A stretch of DNA of 32,318 nucleotides. Source: an uncultured Alphaproteobacteria bacterium (GTDB lineage: Bacteria; Pseudomonadota; Alphaproteobacteria; HIMB59). The DNA lies in the NCBI GenBank assembly GCA_902522585.1, contig CABYWI010000008.1:1-32318 (forward strand). The letters run 5' to 3'. Below, piece by piece: positions 24,779 through 32,318 of the stretch (position 1 is its first letter; every line of letters starts with the position of its first letter). The position numbers and the translations under genes are program-made. Under the pieces are notes generated by a model that saw only the letters and a list, made by a program, of their open reading frames with translations, did not search any database and was not told the DNA's origin.

Positions 24779-25531
24779 CTAAGGTCTTGCTGTTAAGCCT
24801 CCATCAATAATTAGTTCTGTACCAGTAATATACTCACTTTGATCACTGAGTAAAAAAAGAATTCCCTCAGCTATACCTTTAGGTTGGATGATTTTTTTGA
24901 TTGGCATAAATTCTTTTAAGTTTTTTTTTGCGTTTGGGTTCTTTTTCCAGCGATCTTGCATTGAAGTTTCGACAGCACCAGGAAGGATACAGTTGCTTCG
25001 AATATTATAGGGCCCAAACTGGATAGCCAATGACTTAGATAGTCGGATCATGGCTGCCTTACTTGCACCATATGCATCTTGAGGTTTGTCATCTCCAGAA
25101 AGGGCATCTACTGAAGATATATGAACCATAGACCCAAATTTATTTTTTTTCATTATAGGTATGATTAATTTGGAGAGCAGCACCATAGTCTTAAGATTAA
25201 TTTCAAAGACCTTGTCCCAAACATTTAAGTCAAGATCTACCGCAGAAACATCTTTCTCAAACCACAAAACTCCAGTTGTATTTACTAAGTAGTCTATTCT
25301 CTTATTGGTTTTAACAAAATTATTGATAGCTTTTTTTAGTTCATCTTGTTTAACTAAATCTAACTGACAATACGAAACTTTTTTATGTTGTAGAATTTTT
25401 TTGGTTGGTTTTTGTATGTCAAGGGCAAGAATTTTAACGTTGTAATTGAGCAATAACTTTATTGTTGCTAAACCCATTCCTCCTGCAGCACCCGTGACAA
25501 CAACAGTTTTTCCTTTAAACTTTAAATTCAC
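24779..25531 (-). CDS. SDR-family NAD(P)-dependent oxidoreductase
   Basis: Classical short-chain dehydrogenase/reductase of 250 residues. The cofactor loop is TGAAGGMG (13-20), followed by NTTG (84-87, in place of the common NNAG) and the catalytic set N112, S140, Y154 and K158 in the YGASK motif. The acidic D38 after the second strand (LALDIQ) suggests NAD rather than NADP preference. The end IIDGGLTARP is typical of the FabG/glucose-dehydrogenase-like branch. The start is GTG with no clear Shine-Dalgarno. The gene diverges from the aldehyde dehydrogenase operon across a 109-base gap, so a role in the same catabolic pathway is plausible. The substrate is unknown. Confidence 0.92.
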   Translation of the reverse strand: MNLKFKGKTVVVTGAAGGMGLATIKLLLNYNVKILALDIQKPTKKILQHKKVSYCQLDLVKQDELKKAINNFVKTNKRIDYLVNTTGVLWFEKDVSAVDLDLNVWDKVFEINLKTMVLLSKLIIPIMKKNKFGSMVHISSVDALSGDDKPQDAYGASKAAMIRLSKSLAIQFGPYNIRSNCILPGAVETSMQDRWKKNPNAKKNLKEFMPIKKIIQPKGIAEGILFLLSDQSEYITGTELIIDGGLTARP

Positions 25532-25640: not shown

Positions 25641-27029
25641 ATGAGCATTCAAAAAACCATTACACCTATTGACAATTCTGTTTATTTAGAAAGACCTTTA
25701 TCAACCCAATCTGAAATTGATGATGTTATTGAGAATTCCAAAAAAAGTTTTCAATCATGGAAAAGCACTTCTATTGATGATCGTATTAAAATTATAAATA
25801 AGTTTATTGATAATTTAATAGCTCTTAAACCTGAGGTATCAAAAGAAATTTGTTGGCAAATTGGAAGACCCATTTCTCAATGTGGAAATGAATTGCGTGG
25901 TTTTGAAGAAAGGTCAAGGCATATGGTAGAGATTGCAAAAGAGTCCCTGAGAGATATTCCTGCAACTAAAAATGATGAATTTGATAACTATATTTATAAG
26001 TCTCCTTTAGGTGTTATTTTTGTAATGGCACCTTGGAATTATCCTATTATCACTGCTACTAATACCATTGTTCCCGCACTATTAGCAGGCAATACGATAG
26101 TCATAAAACATTCTTCTCAAACACCTCGATGTGCAGAATTAATATCACAAGCTTTTGAAAACACAGGATTACCTAAAGGTGTATTTCAGTTTGTTCATAC
26201 AGATCATCAAACGTGTGAGAAAATTATTTCTGATCCACGAATAGCTCACGTAGTCTTCACGGGTTCCGTGAGAGGTGGTCAAGAAGTTAAGAAATATATT
26301 GGAACTCGTTTTATCAATGTTGGTCTGGAGCTAGGAGGAAAAGATCCTGCTTATGTTCGTTCCGATGCTGATTTAAATCATGCTATTGAGAATTTAGTAG
26401 ATGGAGCAATGTTTAACTCAGGACAGTCTTGTTGTGGCATTGAAAGAATTTATGTTGACCAATCTATTTATAAGGATTTTATCGATGGATTTAAAACTAT
26501 AACTGAACAATATAAATTAGGTGATCCATCTCAAGAGGATACTAATTTAGGACCAGTAGTTCGATTATCAGCTGCAAACTTTATTCGCAGTCAAATTTCC
26601 GAGGCAGAAAAGCAAGGAGCAAAGCGACTAATAGATGAATCAAAATTTTCGATCGCAAAAGATGATAATTGTTACATAGCTCCCCAGGTCATGATCGATG
26701 TAGATCATTCAATGAGATTTATGATGGAGGAAACTTTTGGACCCGCTGTAGGAATTATGCCAGTGAAAGATCAACAAGAAGCAAAACAACTAATGAATGA
26801 TAGTCCCTACGGATTAACGGCTTCTATTTGGACAAAAGATGTAGATTTTGCAAAAGATTTTGGTAGAGAAATTGAGACAGGTACTTTTTTTATGAATAGA
26901 TGTGATTATTTGGATCCCGCTCTTGCATGGACTGGTGTTAAGGATACCGGAGTTGGCTGTTCCTTATCTGTATTAGCCTTTGATCAATTCACGCGTCCTC
27001 AAAGTTTTCATATGCGAAAGGTAGTCTAA
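25641..27029 (+). CDS. NAD(P)-dependent aldehyde dehydrogenase
   Basis: Aldehyde-to-acid dehydrogenase of 462 residues. The oxyanion asparagine N133 is in MAPWNYP, K156 in TIVIKHSS contacts the cofactor, the general base E230 is in GLELGGKDP, and the nucleophile is C264 in FNSGQSCCG. The late EETFGPAVGIMPV segment is also present. The sequence ends with the RPQSFHMRKVV tail rather than a full succinate-semialdehyde dehydrogenase signature, so I leave the substrate open. It opens the plus-strand cluster with the TRAP transporter, the glutamine-synthetase-like ligase and the iron alcohol dehydrogenase, which argues that it oxidises an aldehyde made by that pathway. Confidence 0.93.
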   Translation: MSIQKTITPIDNSVYLERPLSTQSEIDDVIENSKKSFQSWKSTSIDDRIKIINKFIDNLIALKPEVSKEICWQIGRPISQCGNELRGFEERSRHMVEIAKESLRDIPATKNDEFDNYIYKSPLGVIFVMAPWNYPIITATNTIVPALLAGNTIVIKHSSQTPRCAELISQAFENTGLPKGVFQFVHTDHQTCEKIISDPRIAHVVFTGSVRGGQEVKKYIGTRFINVGLELGGKDPAYVRSDADLNHAIENLVDGAMFNSGQSCCGIERIYVDQSIYKDFIDGFKTITEQYKLGDPSQEDTNLGPVVRLSAANFIRSQISEAEKQGAKRLIDESKFSIAKDDNCYIAPQVMIDVDHSMRFMMEETFGPAVGIMPVKDQQEAKQLMNDSPYGLTASIWTKDVDFAKDFGREIETGTFFMNRCDYLDPALAWTGVKDTGVGCSLSVLAFDQFTRPQSFHMRKVV

Positions 27030-27075: not shown

Positions 27076-27585
27076 ATGCCTTCGATCTTTATTCTATATG
27101 TAAAACTCATTGATAAGATTACTAATATCATAGGTCGAATAACTATGTACACCGTCTTTGCTATGATGGGAATTTTAGTTTTATCATTTGTAACAAGAAA
27201 TATTATCAACTTCCCATTACTTTGGATTATTGAGATGGCTCAATTCATCATGACTGGATATTATCTTATGGGCGGTGCATATTCCATGAAAGAACATCAG
27301 CATGTCAGAATGGATTTAGTTTATGGAAGCTTTTCAGAAAAAAATAAGGCAAGGATGGATCTCTTTACAAGTGTCTTTTTAATTTTCTATTTAATAGTGT
27401 TACTAATCGGATCCTATAATAGTCTTGTTTACACTCTTGAGACGAAGAAAACTTTATTTTCTGCCTGGAGACCTTATGTATGGCCTATTAGTAGTATTAT
27501 GTTTTTAGGAATTTTATTGATGTTACTTCAGACTTTTTCAATGGTTTTTAAAGATTATGCAAAAGTCAAAGGAATAAAAATCTAA
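27076..27585 (+). CDS. dctQ: TRAP transporter small permease (DctQ)
   Basis: Four-helix membrane subunit that links the binding protein to the large permease in a sodium-driven TRAP transporter. The 169-residue protein has hydrophobic helices at about 22-42, 48-68, 92-115 and 133-158, with the conserved LLWIIEMAQFIMTGYYLMGGA region and the MKEHQHVRMDL motif of DctQ proteins (about 71-82). A stop codon lies two codons upstream of the ATG, so the start cannot extend further. The stop overlaps the dctM ATG by one base (TAATG). It follows ALDH by 46 bases with a poor ribosome-binding site. Confidence 0.92.
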   Translation: MPSIFILYVKLIDKITNIIGRITMYTVFAMMGILVLSFVTRNIINFPLLWIIEMAQFIMTGYYLMGGAYSMKEHQHVRMDLVYGSFSEKNKARMDLFTSVFLIFYLIVLLIGSYNSLVYTLETKKTLFSAWRPYVWPISSIMFLGILLMLLQTFSMVFKDYAKVKGIKI

Positions 27586-28919
27586 TGTTTGCTGAATATT
27601 TTAGTTACGAAGCTATTGCTATCTTGATGTTTGCCACAATGGTTCTGATGCTTTTAACAGGCCAGCGTGTTTTTGGAGCGATTGGTTTTGTAGCCGCCGC
27701 TGCAGCTTTGCTTATATGGGGCAATGGAGCCGTAGAGATGCCATTCACAGCATCTTGGAAATTATTTAAGTGGTATCCCATGCTTACTCTCCCTTTATTC
27801 ATTTATATGGGCTATATGATTTCAGAGTCAGGCATAGCTAACGATCTTTATAAAATGTTCCATGTATATTTTGGTGGTACGCGTGGAGGACTAGCAATCG
27901 GTACTATGTTTATGATGGTAGCAATTTCTGCCATGAATGGATTAAGTGTTGCGGGTATGGCCGTCGGAGCAACTATTGCACTACCAGAGATGCTAAAAAG
28001 AAATTATGACAAACGGATGATCAGTGGGGTAGTCCAAGCTGGAAGTTCGTTAGGTATTTTAATTCCTCCAAGTGTAGTTCTAGTTTTATATGGAATGATA
28101 GCGAGACAGCCGGTGAGTAAACTTTGGCTTGCGGGTTTAATACCTGGTTTAATTATGGCTACTTTATTTATCTTATACATATACATAAGATGTAAAATTC
28201 AACCCGAGCTCGGACCTGTTCTTCCTGAGAAAGAGAGAAAAATTCCTCTTATTGAAAAAATAAAATTATTAAGAGCAGGAATAATACCCTTTGCTATTTT
28301 TTTTGTTATGACAGGCTTATTTATCATGGGTATAGCTAGTTTAGTTGAGTGTTCTGCTGTTGGAGCTTTAGCTGCAACACTTGCAGCATGGTCAAAAGGA
28401 AGATTAAATTTAAAAGTCATTGAGGATGTTTGCAAAAAAACCTTAGGTGTGTCTTGTATGTTTATGTGGATTATCTTAGCGGCACTTTGTTTTGGGGCTG
28501 TATTCGATGGAATTGGTGCCACAAAAGCTATTGAATCTTTGTTTATCGAAAGATGGAATTTAAGTCCTTGGGGTGTTTTAATTATGATGCAGTTATCATA
28601 CATACTTATGGGAATGTTTCTCGATGATACTGCAATGTTAGTTATTGTTGCACCGCTGTATGTTCCTTTGATTATTGCATTAGGATTTGATCCTATTTGG
28701 TATGGAGTTTTATACACAATTACCTGTCAAATAGCTTATATGACACCACCCTTTGGATATAATCTATTTCTAATGCGAGCTATGGCCCCAAAAGAAATTA
28801 CTCTTATTGATATATATAGATCTATAATTCCATTTGTTTTGGTAATGTTATTTGGTTTGATTATTATGATGATGTTTCCTCAAATAGCTTTATGGCTACC
28901 CACAACTATCTTAGGCTAA
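27585..28919 (+). CDS. dctM: TRAP transporter large permease (DctM)
   Basis: Transport-conducting membrane subunit, about 12 hydrophobic helices in 444 residues. The family motifs are TLPLFIYMGYMISESGIANDLY (broken across about 67-88), SAMNGLSVAGMAVGATIALPEML, the GSSLGILIPPSVVLVLYGM segment (about 152-170), and the later GMFLDDTAMLVIVAPL and MTPPFGYNLFLM blocks, which include the cation- and substrate-related regions of the second repeat. A long open frame on the opposite strand within this gene is a shadow. Translation is coupled to dctQ; dctP follows after 73 bases. Confidence 0.95.
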   Translation: MFAEYFSYEAIAILMFATMVLMLLTGQRVFGAIGFVAAAAALLIWGNGAVEMPFTASWKLFKWYPMLTLPLFIYMGYMISESGIANDLYKMFHVYFGGTRGGLAIGTMFMMVAISAMNGLSVAGMAVGATIALPEMLKRNYDKRMISGVVQAGSSLGILIPPSVVLVLYGMIARQPVSKLWLAGLIPGLIMATLFILYIYIRCKIQPELGPVLPEKERKIPLIEKIKLLRAGIIPFAIFFVMTGLFIMGIASLVECSAVGALAATLAAWSKGRLNLKVIEDVCKKTLGVSCMFMWIILAALCFGAVFDGIGATKAIESLFIERWNLSPWGVLIMMQLSYILMGMFLDDTAMLVIVAPLYVPLIIALGFDPIWYGVLYTITCQIAYMTPPFGYNLFLMRAMAPKEITLIDIYRSIIPFVLVMLFGLIIMMMFPQIALWLPTTILG

Positions 28920-28992: not shown

Positions 28993-30072
28993 ATGTCGAC
29001 AAAAAATAAAATAAAAAATACCTCTTCAAGAAGAGGCTTCTTAAAAAAAGCTGGTTTAGTTTCTGCAGCTGCTATTGGCGCAACAGCAGCAAAAGCACCA
29101 TATGTATATGCAGCATCCAATCCAATTAAATGGAGATTACAAACTTATTCTGGTGCCCCACTTGGAGCTCACGTTGTTCTCCCTCAGATAGAGGCTTTCA
29201 ACAAAGCAGCTCATGGTGAAATGGAAATTGAACTTTTCTATGCAGATCAGTTAGTTCCTACTGATGAACTATTTAGAGCAATGCAAGCTGGAACTATTGA
29301 TGCGGTTCAAAGTGATGACGCAACTATGGGATCACCAGTAGATATTTCTGTTTTTGGTGGATATTTCCCATTTGCAACTCGATATAGTCTAGATGTTCCT
29401 GCAATGTTTAGATACTACGGTCTAGATAAGATTTGGGCAGAAGCTTATGGAGAAGTGGACAATGTAACTTGGTTGAGTACTAGTGCTTGGGATCCATGTC
29501 ATTTATTTACAGTGAATAAAAAAATTGAAAAACTTTCAGACATGAAGGGTCTCAGAGTTTTTGGTGTTCCAACTGCAGGTCGTTTCTTAGCTCAGTATGG
29601 TTTGATACCAGTCACTGTTCCTTGGGATGACGTTGAAGTAGCAATGCAAACCGGTGAATTAGATGGTGTTTGCTGGTGTGGATTTACAGAGGCTTATGAA
29701 GTTGGATGGGCAGATATTTGTAATTATGCTCTTACTAACTCTGTTACAGGTGCATGGTTCGGTTCATATTTTGCTAATAGTGAAAGTTGGAACAAATTAT
29801 CACCTAAGCTTCAAGAGCTCTTCAGAATGTCTATTGATCAGTCACACTACTATAGACAAGTATGGTATTGGGGCGGTGAAGCTGACCTTCGTGTGAACGG
29901 TAAAAAAATGGAACTAACAAGTCTTCCTGCTGATGAATGGGCTGGTGTTGTAAGCGACGCTGGAAAATTCTGGGATGATGTAGCTGCTTCTTCTCCAAGA
30001 AGTGGTAAGGTTGTAGAGGCATTTAAATTATACGCTGATACAATGGAAAAAGCTGGATATCCATATAGATAA
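28993..30072 (+). CDS. dctP: TRAP transporter periplasmic substrate-binding protein (DctP)
   Basis: Periplasmic ligand-binding subunit of the TRAP system. A Tat-type signal is clear: SSRRGFLKK (11-19) with a hydrophobic core and probable cleavage after YVYA at residue 40. The mature protein shows the DctP/TakP fold pattern: KWRLQTYSGAPLGAH (46-60), ELFRAMQAGTIDAV (92-105), DMKGLRVFGVPTAGRF (183-198), VEVAMQTGELDGV (214-226) and the family helix SPKLQELFRMSIDQS. Length 359 is typical. At the position where most TRAP binding proteins have an Arg in the LKGLKIR motif, this protein has F190 (MKGLRVF), and the pocket region is rich in Trp and Tyr. A non-carboxylate ligand is therefore likely. Confidence 0.93.
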   Translation: MSTKNKIKNTSSRRGFLKKAGLVSAAAIGATAAKAPYVYAASNPIKWRLQTYSGAPLGAHVVLPQIEAFNKAAHGEMEIELFYADQLVPTDELFRAMQAGTIDAVQSDDATMGSPVDISVFGGYFPFATRYSLDVPAMFRYYGLDKIWAEAYGEVDNVTWLSTSAWDPCHLFTVNKKIEKLSDMKGLRVFGVPTAGRFLAQYGLIPVTVPWDDVEVAMQTGELDGVCWCGFTEAYEVGWADICNYALTNSVTGAWFGSYFANSESWNKLSPKLQELFRMSIDQSHYYRQVWYWGGEADLRVNGKKMELTSLPADEWAGVVSDAGKFWDDVAASSPRSGKVVEAFKLYADTMEKAGYPYR

Positions 30073-30135: not shown

Positions 30136-31497
30136 ATGGCCATTAGTTTTAAAGATCTAGAAAAAAAAATTAAATTAAGAGAAATTGATACTGTTCTTGT
30201 AGCTCTATCTGATATGCAAGGAAGACTTGTTGGAAAAAGAGTTACCGGAAAAGCTTTTTTAGATTACGTTCATAAAGAAACTCATTTTTGTAATTATCTA
30301 TATACCGTCGACATGGATATGTATACTGTGCCTGGTTTTAAATCCTCATCATGGGAAACAGGATATGGCGATATGACTGTAATCCCCGATCATCAAACTA
30401 TTAAAGAACTACCTTGGTTAGAAAAAACCGCATTAGTTTTAGGAGATGCCTTTGAACATGATGGCAAAACCCCAGTTGCACATTCTACAAGACAAGTTTT
30501 AAGAGAGGCCATAACTAAAGCAAATAAAATGGGATTTGAACCAATGCTTGGATCAGAATTAGAATTTTTTCTCTTTAAACAATCTTACGAAGAAATCCAT
30601 TCTAATCACTATAAGAATTTGAAGGAAACATCTTGGTATATTGAAGATTACATGATTTTTCAAACTTCAAAAGAGGAGGCTTTCAATCAAGAATTAAGAA
30701 ATAGTCTCTTAGACTCAGGTATTTATGTAGAGTGCACCAAAGGAGAGGCAGCACCAGGCCAACAAGAAATTAATGTTGTTTTTACTGATGCACTAAACAT
30801 GGCAGATAATCATATTCTGATTAAGAATGCTGCAAAAGAAATTGCTTTCAAACATAATCGAGCTGCTAGCTTTATGGCAAAATATAATAAAGAAGCTTGT
30901 GGGAGTTCATGTCATATTCATAATTCTTTATTTGATAAGAAATCTAAAAAAAATATTTTTGCTGACTCAAAAGATAAATATGGCATGTCTAAAACTTTTA
31001 AAAGTTACGTTGCAGGTCAGATTTTATTCTTAAGAGATCTTTCAATCTTTTTAGCGCCAAATATTAATTCTTATAAACGCTTTCAAGAGGGTTCTTTCGC
31101 ACCAACTACTGCTGCTTGGGGTATTGATAACAGAACAGCTGGTTTTCGCTTAGCTGGCCACGGAGGTTCAATACGAATTGAGTGTCGAGTACCCGGGGCT
31201 GACGTTAATCCTTATTTGGCTTTTGCTGGTTTAATTCAAGCAGGTTTATATGGAATTGAAAATAAATTAGATTTAGAAGACCCTTTGATGGGAAACATTT
31301 ACCAAAACAAAAAAGCCAAAAATGTTCCTGGCACTTTAAGGGAAGCTATCAATTTAGCTAAAAAATCTAAGTTACTTCCAAAGATTTTCCACCTTGATGT
31401 TTTGGAGCACTATATTCATGCTGCCGAATGGGAACAGTCTGAATATGATAAATCTGTAAACGATTGGGAACACCAACGTTACTTTGAACGAGGATAA
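30136..31497 (+). CDS. Glutamine-synthetase-like gamma-glutamyl ligase
   Basis: Ligase of the glutamine synthetase superfamily, closest in pattern to the group that joins glutamate to an amine (PuuA, IpuC, GlnA4 and similar). Metal and substrate residues are kept: E141 and E143 in GSELEFFL, E204 and E211 in GEAAPGQQEIN, H260 in GSSCHIHNS, R315 in NSYKRFQEG, N332 and R333 in DNRTAGFR, and E349 and R351 in RIECRVPGADVNPYL. Housekeeping GlnA has a FDGSS loop that binds ammonium; here that region reads PGFKSSSWETGYGD, so the acceptor is probably an organic amine. The adenylylated Tyr loop is not obvious. Length is 453. Its ATG has no clear Shine-Dalgarno, and it follows a stem-loop. Confidence 0.88.
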   Translation: MAISFKDLEKKIKLREIDTVLVALSDMQGRLVGKRVTGKAFLDYVHKETHFCNYLYTVDMDMYTVPGFKSSSWETGYGDMTVIPDHQTIKELPWLEKTALVLGDAFEHDGKTPVAHSTRQVLREAITKANKMGFEPMLGSELEFFLFKQSYEEIHSNHYKNLKETSWYIEDYMIFQTSKEEAFNQELRNSLLDSGIYVECTKGEAAPGQQEINVVFTDALNMADNHILIKNAAKEIAFKHNRAASFMAKYNKEACGSSCHIHNSLFDKKSKKNIFADSKDKYGMSKTFKSYVAGQILFLRDLSIFLAPNINSYKRFQEGSFAPTTAAWGIDNRTAGFRLAGHGGSIRIECRVPGADVNPYLAFAGLIQAGLYGIENKLDLEDPLMGNIYQNKKAKNVPGTLREAINLAKKSKLLPKIFHLDVLEHYIHAAEWEQSEYDKSVNDWEHQRYFERG

Positions 31498-31511: not shown

Positions 31512-32318
31512 ATGCAAAATATGAACTGGAATTATCCAACCAATGTCTGGTTTGGTCCTGATCGATCTCGGCAAATACAACAAGCTTGTGATGCTTTGGG
31601 TATGAAAAACCCTCTTATCGTGACTGACCCAGGTCTGCTGCAAACTCCTATTGTTGATGAAATTAATTCTAATCTTTCATCTAAAACAAATATTTATTCT
31701 GATGTTCAAGGAAATCCTACCGGTTCAAATGTTATCAATGGAGTTAAAGTATTTTTAGAAGGTAATCATGATGGGGTTATTGCAATAGGTGGTGGTTCCG
31801 GAATGGATGCGGGAAAGGGGATTGCTTTTCTAGCTCATCAGTCAAGACCATTATGGGATTTCGAAGATATTGGAGATTGGTGGACTCGAGCTAACTCTGA
31901 TGTAATTAAACCTATTATTGCGATACCAACTACAGCGGGGACAGGTTCTGAGGTTGGGAGAGCAGGGGTTTTCTTGAATGAAGATAATCATAAAAAGAAA
32001 ATTATTTTTCATCCAAAGATGTTACCTCAAATTTCAATTTTAGATCCTTCTTTAACAATTAACTTACCAAAAGGAATTACAGCTGGAACAGGGATGGATG
32101 CGCTAGCTCATTGCTTAGAAGCTTACTCATCTCCTTTTTATCACCCTATGGCAGAGGGTACGGCTTTAGAAGGTCTTCGTTTGGTGAAAGAAAATATTCA
32201 AGAGGTTTATCACAATGGAAAAAATATTGAAGCTCGTGCCCATATGCTTGTTGCATCAATGATGGGCGCAGCTGCTTTTCAAAAAGGACTAGGGGCCATT
32301 CATTCAATTACACATCCA
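31512..32318 (+). CDS. Iron-containing alcohol dehydrogenase (3' end outside window)
   Basis: Partial gene; 269 codons are visible. It matches the group III Fe-ADH family: NWNYPTNVWFGPDRSRQ at the start, AIGGGSGMDAGKGIAF (the GGGS cofactor loop) and IPTTAGTGSEVG in the first domain. Metal ligands appear in GTGMDALAHCLEAY (Asp and His) and GLGAIHSITHP, where the second His is present and the last expected one lies beyond the window. It would oxidise a primary alcohol to an aldehyde, or the reverse, with NAD. The start is ATG with AGGAG at 31501-31505, 14 bases after the ligase stop. The pathway position is upstream of the aldehyde dehydrogenase if the alcohol is the substrate. Confidence 0.92.
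   Translation, partial: MQNMNWNYPTNVWFGPDRSRQIQQACDALGMKNPLIVTDPGLLQTPIVDEINSNLSSKTNIYSDVQGNPTGSNVINGVKVFLEGNHDGVIAIGGGSGMDAGKGIAFLAHQSRPLWDFEDIGDWWTRANSDVIKPIIAIPTTAGTGSEVGRAGVFLNEDNHKKKIIFHPKMLPQISILDPSLTINLPKGITAGTGMDALAHCLEAYSSPFYHPMAEGTALEGLRLVKENIQEVYHNGKNIEARAHMLVASMMGAAAFQKGLGAIHSITHP

What the first reader, a model, noticed from the sequence alone, without database searches (positions are those of the whole stretch)
29533..29577. TRAP binding protein appears to lack the carboxylate-binding arginine
Most TRAP binding proteins have LKGLKIR-like residues, and the Arg forms a salt bridge to the ligand carboxylate. Here the same position in MKGLRVF holds F190, with the only Arg two residues earlier (R188). 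The pocket-side region nearby (VCWCGFTEAYEVGWADI) is rich in aromatic residues, as in sites that bind cations or uncharged ligands. This matches the amine hypothesis for the operon. The alignment was made by eye; a two-residue shift would restore an Arg.
Basis: partly seen in the sequence, partly recalled or inferred. Interest (0 to 1): 0.6.

Follow-up and report, generated by a model that had tools for sequence, protein, structure and literature searches.

The report
Known ethanolamine-type TRAP binding protein
A marine bacterium's uptake protein does lack the arginine that normally grips acidic nutrients, but this is the already described hallmark of a known family, solved in crystals, that instead picks up ethanolamine from decaying membranes.

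Summary
The ORF at 28993-30072 is a Tat-signal TRAP (DctP) binding protein, and F190 (codon 29560-29562) sits where typical DctP proteins carry the carboxylate-binding Arg. R188 is the ordinary basic residue two positions earlier, K or R in nearly all DctP proteins. TakP-like relatives of identical spacing, profile alignment and a published statement about a solved homologue settle it for F190.

The finding is not new. The protein is 57-59% identical to Chromohalobacter salexigens Csal_0678 (PDB 4UAB/4XF5), which has the same Arg-to-Phe motif and was solved with ethanolamine bound. Fischer et al. 2015 reported that about 3% of DctP proteins lack the Arg, that Phe is the commonest substitute, and that Csal_0678 is an example. 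The marine homologue EtoX (Phaeobacter) binds ethanolamine with Kd 7.9 uM, and etoX is counted in SAR11.

The operon (ALDH, DctQ, DctM, EtoX, glutamine-synthetase-like ligase, Fe-alcohol dehydrogenase) matches the known gamma-glutamyl ethanolamine pathway.

One small open point: the window's subclade differs from the tested proteins near the pocket and, elsewhere, often sits beside a glycerol-kinase-like module. Its exact ligand is unmeasured in the sources read.

The parts
28993..30072 (+). etoX/dctP-type TRAP solute-binding protein, 359 aa, Tat-type signal (SRRGFLKKAG)
   Evidence: ORF; PF03480 DctP 6.4e-15; 4UAB/4XF5 E 1.1e-128; predicted model superposes on 4xf5_A with Z 45.1, rmsd 1.4 over 314 residues
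29533..29577 (+). motif LSDMKGLRVFGVPTA (residues 181-195) holding F190 in the canonical Arg position
29560..29562 (+). codon of F190 (TTT), replacing the carboxylate-binding Arg (SiaP Arg-147 equivalent)
   Evidence: PMC4646407 for the homologue Csal_0678
29668..29718 (+). aromatic stretch VCWCGFTEAYEVGWADI (residues 226-242); W228, T232, E233, Y235, W239 invariant in all 21 EtoX-type proteins, while C229, F231 and E236 differ between the window's subclade and the Csal_0678 group
25641..27029 (+). aldehyde dehydrogenase (proposed gamma-glutamyl aminoacetaldehyde dehydrogenase)
   Evidence: PF00171 1.6e-119; same gene set as in MED193/Ruegeria etoX loci
27076..27585 (+). TRAP small permease DctQ
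   Evidence: PF04290 1.1e-19
27585..28919 (+). TRAP large permease DctM
   Evidence: PF06808 5.7e-67
30136..31497 (+). glutamine-synthetase-like ligase (proposed ethanolamine gamma-glutamylase)
   Evidence: PF00120 4.3e-97; below every NCBIfam glutamine synthetase cut-off; a GS-family gene follows etoX in Ruegeria and P. alcaliphilus
31512..32318 (+). iron-containing alcohol dehydrogenase, cut by the contig end (proposed gamma-glutamyl ethanolamide dehydrogenase)
   Evidence: complete copy in L006 12534-13679 is PF00465/PF25137; contig ends at 32318

Best explanation
The protein is the HIMB59-group version of the known ethanolamine-binding TRAP receptor (EtoX/Csal_0678 type). F190 fills the place of the carboxylate-binding Arg, so the pocket no longer selects for an acid; an aromatic and acidic pocket instead holds the small cationic amino alcohol ethanolamine. 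EtoX passes it to DctQM for import. The GS-like ligase then makes gamma-glutamyl ethanolamide, the iron alcohol dehydrogenase and the aldehyde dehydrogenase oxidise it to gamma-glutamyl glycine, and an amidohydrolase releases glycine and glutamate. Shown here: homology, register of F190, operon content. Shown by others on homologues: ethanolamine in the crystal, Kd 7.9 uM, induction of the operon. Inferred: the ligand of this exact protein and which residues contact the amine.
For: 4UAB/4XF5 is far the closest solved protein (E 1e-128 against 2e-12 for the next; Z 45 against at most 35.8 for the rest). F190 is in the Arg column and conserved as F/Y. Fischer 2015 states that Csal_0678 lacks the Arg and binds ethanolamine and that Phe is the commonest substitute. 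EtoX of Phaeobacter binds ethanolamine at 7.9 uM, its operon has the same enzymes, and etoX is found in SAR11. GS, ALDH and Fe-ADH neighbours occur in HIMB59-like loci and Roseobacter etoX plasmids. A member of the window's own subclade in Chelatococcus lies beside eutBC, ethanolamine ammonia-lyase.
Against: The window protein lies in a strongly supported subclade separate from Csal_0678 and differs in residues flanking F190 and in the aromatic stretch (191, 192, 229, 231, 236). Several members of that subclade sit beside a glycerol-kinase-like and FAD-oxidase module without the gamma-glutamyl enzymes. No amidohydrolase gene lies in the window; the nearest candidate in the genome is on another contig at 35% identity. 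No ligand was measured for this clade in the papers read.
Confidence: 0.86

Rival explanations
1. The subclade of the window protein has kept the Arg-less pocket but prefers another small polar ligand, such as glycerol or a different primary amino alcohol.
For: In Ancylobacter, Tabrizicola, Tistrella, Rhizobium, Chelatococcus and others the same subclade lies beside a glycerol-kinase-like FGGY kinase, a GlpA/glycerol-3-phosphate-oxidase-like FAD enzyme and a GlpR/DeoR regulator; in one SAR11 locus an FGGY kinase and an NAD glycerol-3-phosphate dehydrogenase-like gene lie upstream. Residues 191, 192, 229, 231 and 236 differ from the Csal_0678 group.
Against: The GS-like ligase next door (window, Paracoccus albus, Marivivens) implies a primary amine, and eutBC is the neighbour in Chelatococcus. 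Other family-specific residues examined (D85, D108, D167, W228, E233, Y235, W239) are shared by both groups.
Confidence: 0.1
2. It is an ordinary carboxylate-binding DctP in which R188, not F190, is the canonical Arg (the two-residue shift).
For: phmmer against 2zzv and MAFFT with only SiaP-like relatives put R188 in the Arg column.
Against: TakP-like relatives of equal spacing, the 31-member set and hhalign give F190; position 188 is K in most canonical proteins and K in two EtoX-type proteins, so it is the usual basic residue before the Arg; published work says the solved homologue lacks the Arg.
Confidence: 0.03
3. The Phe is drift in a decaying gene, without meaning for the ligand.
For: None found.
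Against: F/Y190 is conserved over the whole 50-100% identity range and the ORF and operon are intact in many genomes.
Confidence: 0.01

Closest known systems
Csal_0678 of Chromohalobacter salexigens (PDB 4UAB, 4XF5), ethanolamine-binding TRAP receptor
   Same: 57-59% identity over the whole mature protein, same R-x-F motif in place of K-x-R, same fold (Z 45, 1.4 A)
   Different: Residues 191-192 are GV here and TF there; 229/231/234/236 are C, F, A, E here and S, I, D, T there
EtoX of Phaeobacter sp. MED193 (MED193_10041), Kd for ethanolamine 7.9 uM (PMC10132767)
   Same: Same operon content with ethanolamine gamma-glutamylase, two dehydrogenases and EtoVW permeases; a Ruegeria relative with that operon is about 62% identical to the window protein
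   Different: The ALDH gene precedes the transporter here and follows it there; no RpiR regulator or amidohydrolase seen in the window
TakP (2HZK/2HZL) and SiaP, canonical carboxylate TRAP receptors
   Same: DctP fold (Z about 30-33); same spacing around the motif in TakP-like proteins
   Different: They carry the carboxylate-binding Arg; the window protein has Phe

Membership tests
EtoX/Csal_0678 ethanolamine TRAP receptors | Sequence match well above other DctP proteins (PMC10132767 used a profile cut-off of 1e-60 and clustering with Csal_0678) | tested here: met
   E 1.1e-128 to 4UAB against 2e-12 for the next solved protein; tree clade with Csal_0678 against other DctP
EtoX/Csal_0678 ethanolamine TRAP receptors | No Arg-147 equivalent; Phe in its place | tested here: met
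   literature
EtoX/Csal_0678 ethanolamine TRAP receptors | Operon with GS-like ligase, Fe-ADH, ALDH and TRAP permeases | tested here: met
EtoX/Csal_0678 ethanolamine TRAP receptors | gamma-glutamylglycine amidohydrolase in the operon | tested here: inconclusive
   Not in the window, which ends at the contig end; 35% match on another contig to a GATase-type gene of a SAR11 locus; genome about 54% complete
EtoX/Csal_0678 ethanolamine TRAP receptors | Binds ethanolamine | not testable with these tools
   Needs ITC, thermal shift or a crystal
Canonical carboxylate-binding DctP | Conserved Arg (SiaP Arg-147 equivalent) | tested here: not met
   F190 in the Arg column
TRAP transporter P subunit (DctP, PF03480) | DctP fold and adjacent DctQ/DctM | tested here: met

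The most novel reading that the evidence does not exclude
The HIMB59/SAR11/Rhizobiales subclade of EtoX (motif RVFGVPTAG, CGFTEAYE) has a changed or widened ligand range compared with Csal_0678, for example glycerol-like polyols or another amino alcohol, reflecting its repeated linkage to a glycerol-kinase-like and GlpA-like module.
Probability: 0.12. Interest if true: 0.45.

Novelty: new member of a known kind. Interest (0 to 1): 0.13.

Why it matters
It assigns ethanolamine uptake and use to a HIMB59-type marine alphaproteobacterium, linking phospholipid turnover to its carbon and nitrogen supply. The missing arginine itself is an already published hallmark of this receptor family. The only fresh question is whether the window's subclade has exactly the same ligand.

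Tried and rejected
First AlphaFold2 job with only close homologues gave a useless model (pLDDT 43); a wider alignment gave pLDDT 86. Fold search returns only ranges, and model coordinates are not readable in the script box, so a residue-by-residue superposition at F190 could not be made. R188 as the canonical Arg was considered because some alignments give it and rejected. Vetting et al. 2015, the source of the crystal structure, is not in the paper library, so the contact residues of ethanolamine could not be read. The own-genome FASTA was not available. A literature search for SAR11/HIMB59 receptors with ethanolamine gave nothing beyond PMC10132767.

Full report
What is there. The ORF at 28993-30072 encodes a 359-residue protein with a Tat-type signal (SRRGFLKKAG) and one Pfam domain, DctP. 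Residues 181-195 read LSDMKGLRVFGVPTA at exactly the coordinates given; R188 is codon 29554-29556 and F190 is 29560-29562.

Is F190 in the arginine position? Among 31 DctP proteins taken from across the class, including a TakP-like one from the same genome, the canonical column is Arg in all. With all 31, with the TakP-like ones alone, and by profile-profile alignment, F190 falls in this column; with SiaP-like ones alone the aligner slips by two and places R188 there. The slip is an artefact of a two-residue longer loop in SiaP-like proteins: relatives with exactly the window's spacing need no gap, and the ungapped register wins in 252 of 252 pairs. In the 53-sequence alignment, position 188 is K or R in nearly everything, canonical or not (K in two EtoX-type proteins), while 190 is R in all 32 non-EtoX proteins and F or Y in all 21 EtoX-type proteins. 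In close homologues F190 is F in 79 of 79 readable sequences. A residue-level superposition could not be made with the tools, but published work on the solved homologue says that the Arg is absent.

What it is. The closest solved protein is Csal_0678 of Chromohalobacter salexigens (4UAB, 4XF5) at E 1e-128, the next best being 2e-12. The predicted model (pLDDT 86) superposes on 4XF5 with Z 45.1 and 1.4 A over 314 residues, against Z of at most 35.8 for anything else. Fischer et al. 2015 (PMC4646407) wrote that about 3% of DctP proteins lack the Arg, that Phe is the commonest replacement, and that Csal_0678 lacks it and binds ethanolamine. The 2023 paper on Phaeobacter (PMC10132767) named the receptor EtoX, measured Kd 7.9 uM for ethanolamine, and attributed 19% of ocean etoX hits to SAR11.

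Surroundings. The window has ALDH, DctQ, DctM, EtoX, GS-like ligase and Fe-ADH in one direction, the contig ending inside the last gene. The same genes accompany etoX in other HIMB59-type genomes and in Ruegeria and Paracoccus plasmids. This is the gamma-glutamyl ethanolamine pathway described for MED193. Many SAR11 loci keep SDR, ALDH and Fe-ADH without the GS gene beside etoX; L034, read in full, also has a class-I amidotransferase there.

What remains open. The window protein belongs to a subclade with 100/100 support, distinct from Csal_0678 and the Ruegeria protein, and differs from them at 191, 192, 229, 231 and 236. Outside HIMB59/SAR11 that subclade often lies next to a GlpR/DeoR regulator, two FAD oxidoreductases (one glycerol-3-phosphate-oxidase-like) and a glycerol-kinase-like FGGY kinase. 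In Chelatococcus the neighbours also include eutBC, which supports ethanolamine; in Paracoccus albus and Marivivens both the FGGY module and the gamma-glutamyl enzymes are present. Ethanolamine therefore remains the best call, with a modest chance of a changed or widened ligand range.

Verdict. Observation confirmed, interpretation supported, but the phenomenon and the family are already published; a new member of a known kind, low interest.

Noticed in passing
L135 4760-13204; L136 1027-5957; L137 911-5977; also L077, L079-L082, L139: In the window protein's subclade outside SAR11/HIMB59, etoX-dctQM is repeatedly linked to a GlpR/DeoR regulator, a glycerol-3-phosphate-oxidase-like FAD enzyme, a second FAD oxidoreductase and a glycerol-kinase-like FGGY kinase, whose role with ethanolamine is unexplained.
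   Followed up: partly
L034 3900-6415: In a SAR11 locus an FGGY kinase and an NAD glycerol-3-phosphate dehydrogenase-like gene lie upstream of dctQM-etoX, separated by a flavin-monooxygenase-like gene.
   Followed up: partly
L034 11128-15293 and similar SAR11 loci: About 40 of the 80 homologous loci, mostly SAR11, have etoX followed by SDR, ALDH and usually Fe-ADH but no GS-like ligase next to it; in L034, the one read in full, a class-I amidotransferase follows.
   Followed up: no
window 24779-25531 (minus strand): A short-chain dehydrogenase gene accompanies the etoX operon in HIMB59 and SAR11 loci, on the opposite strand, though its position varies; its place in the pathway is not described in the papers read.
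   Followed up: no
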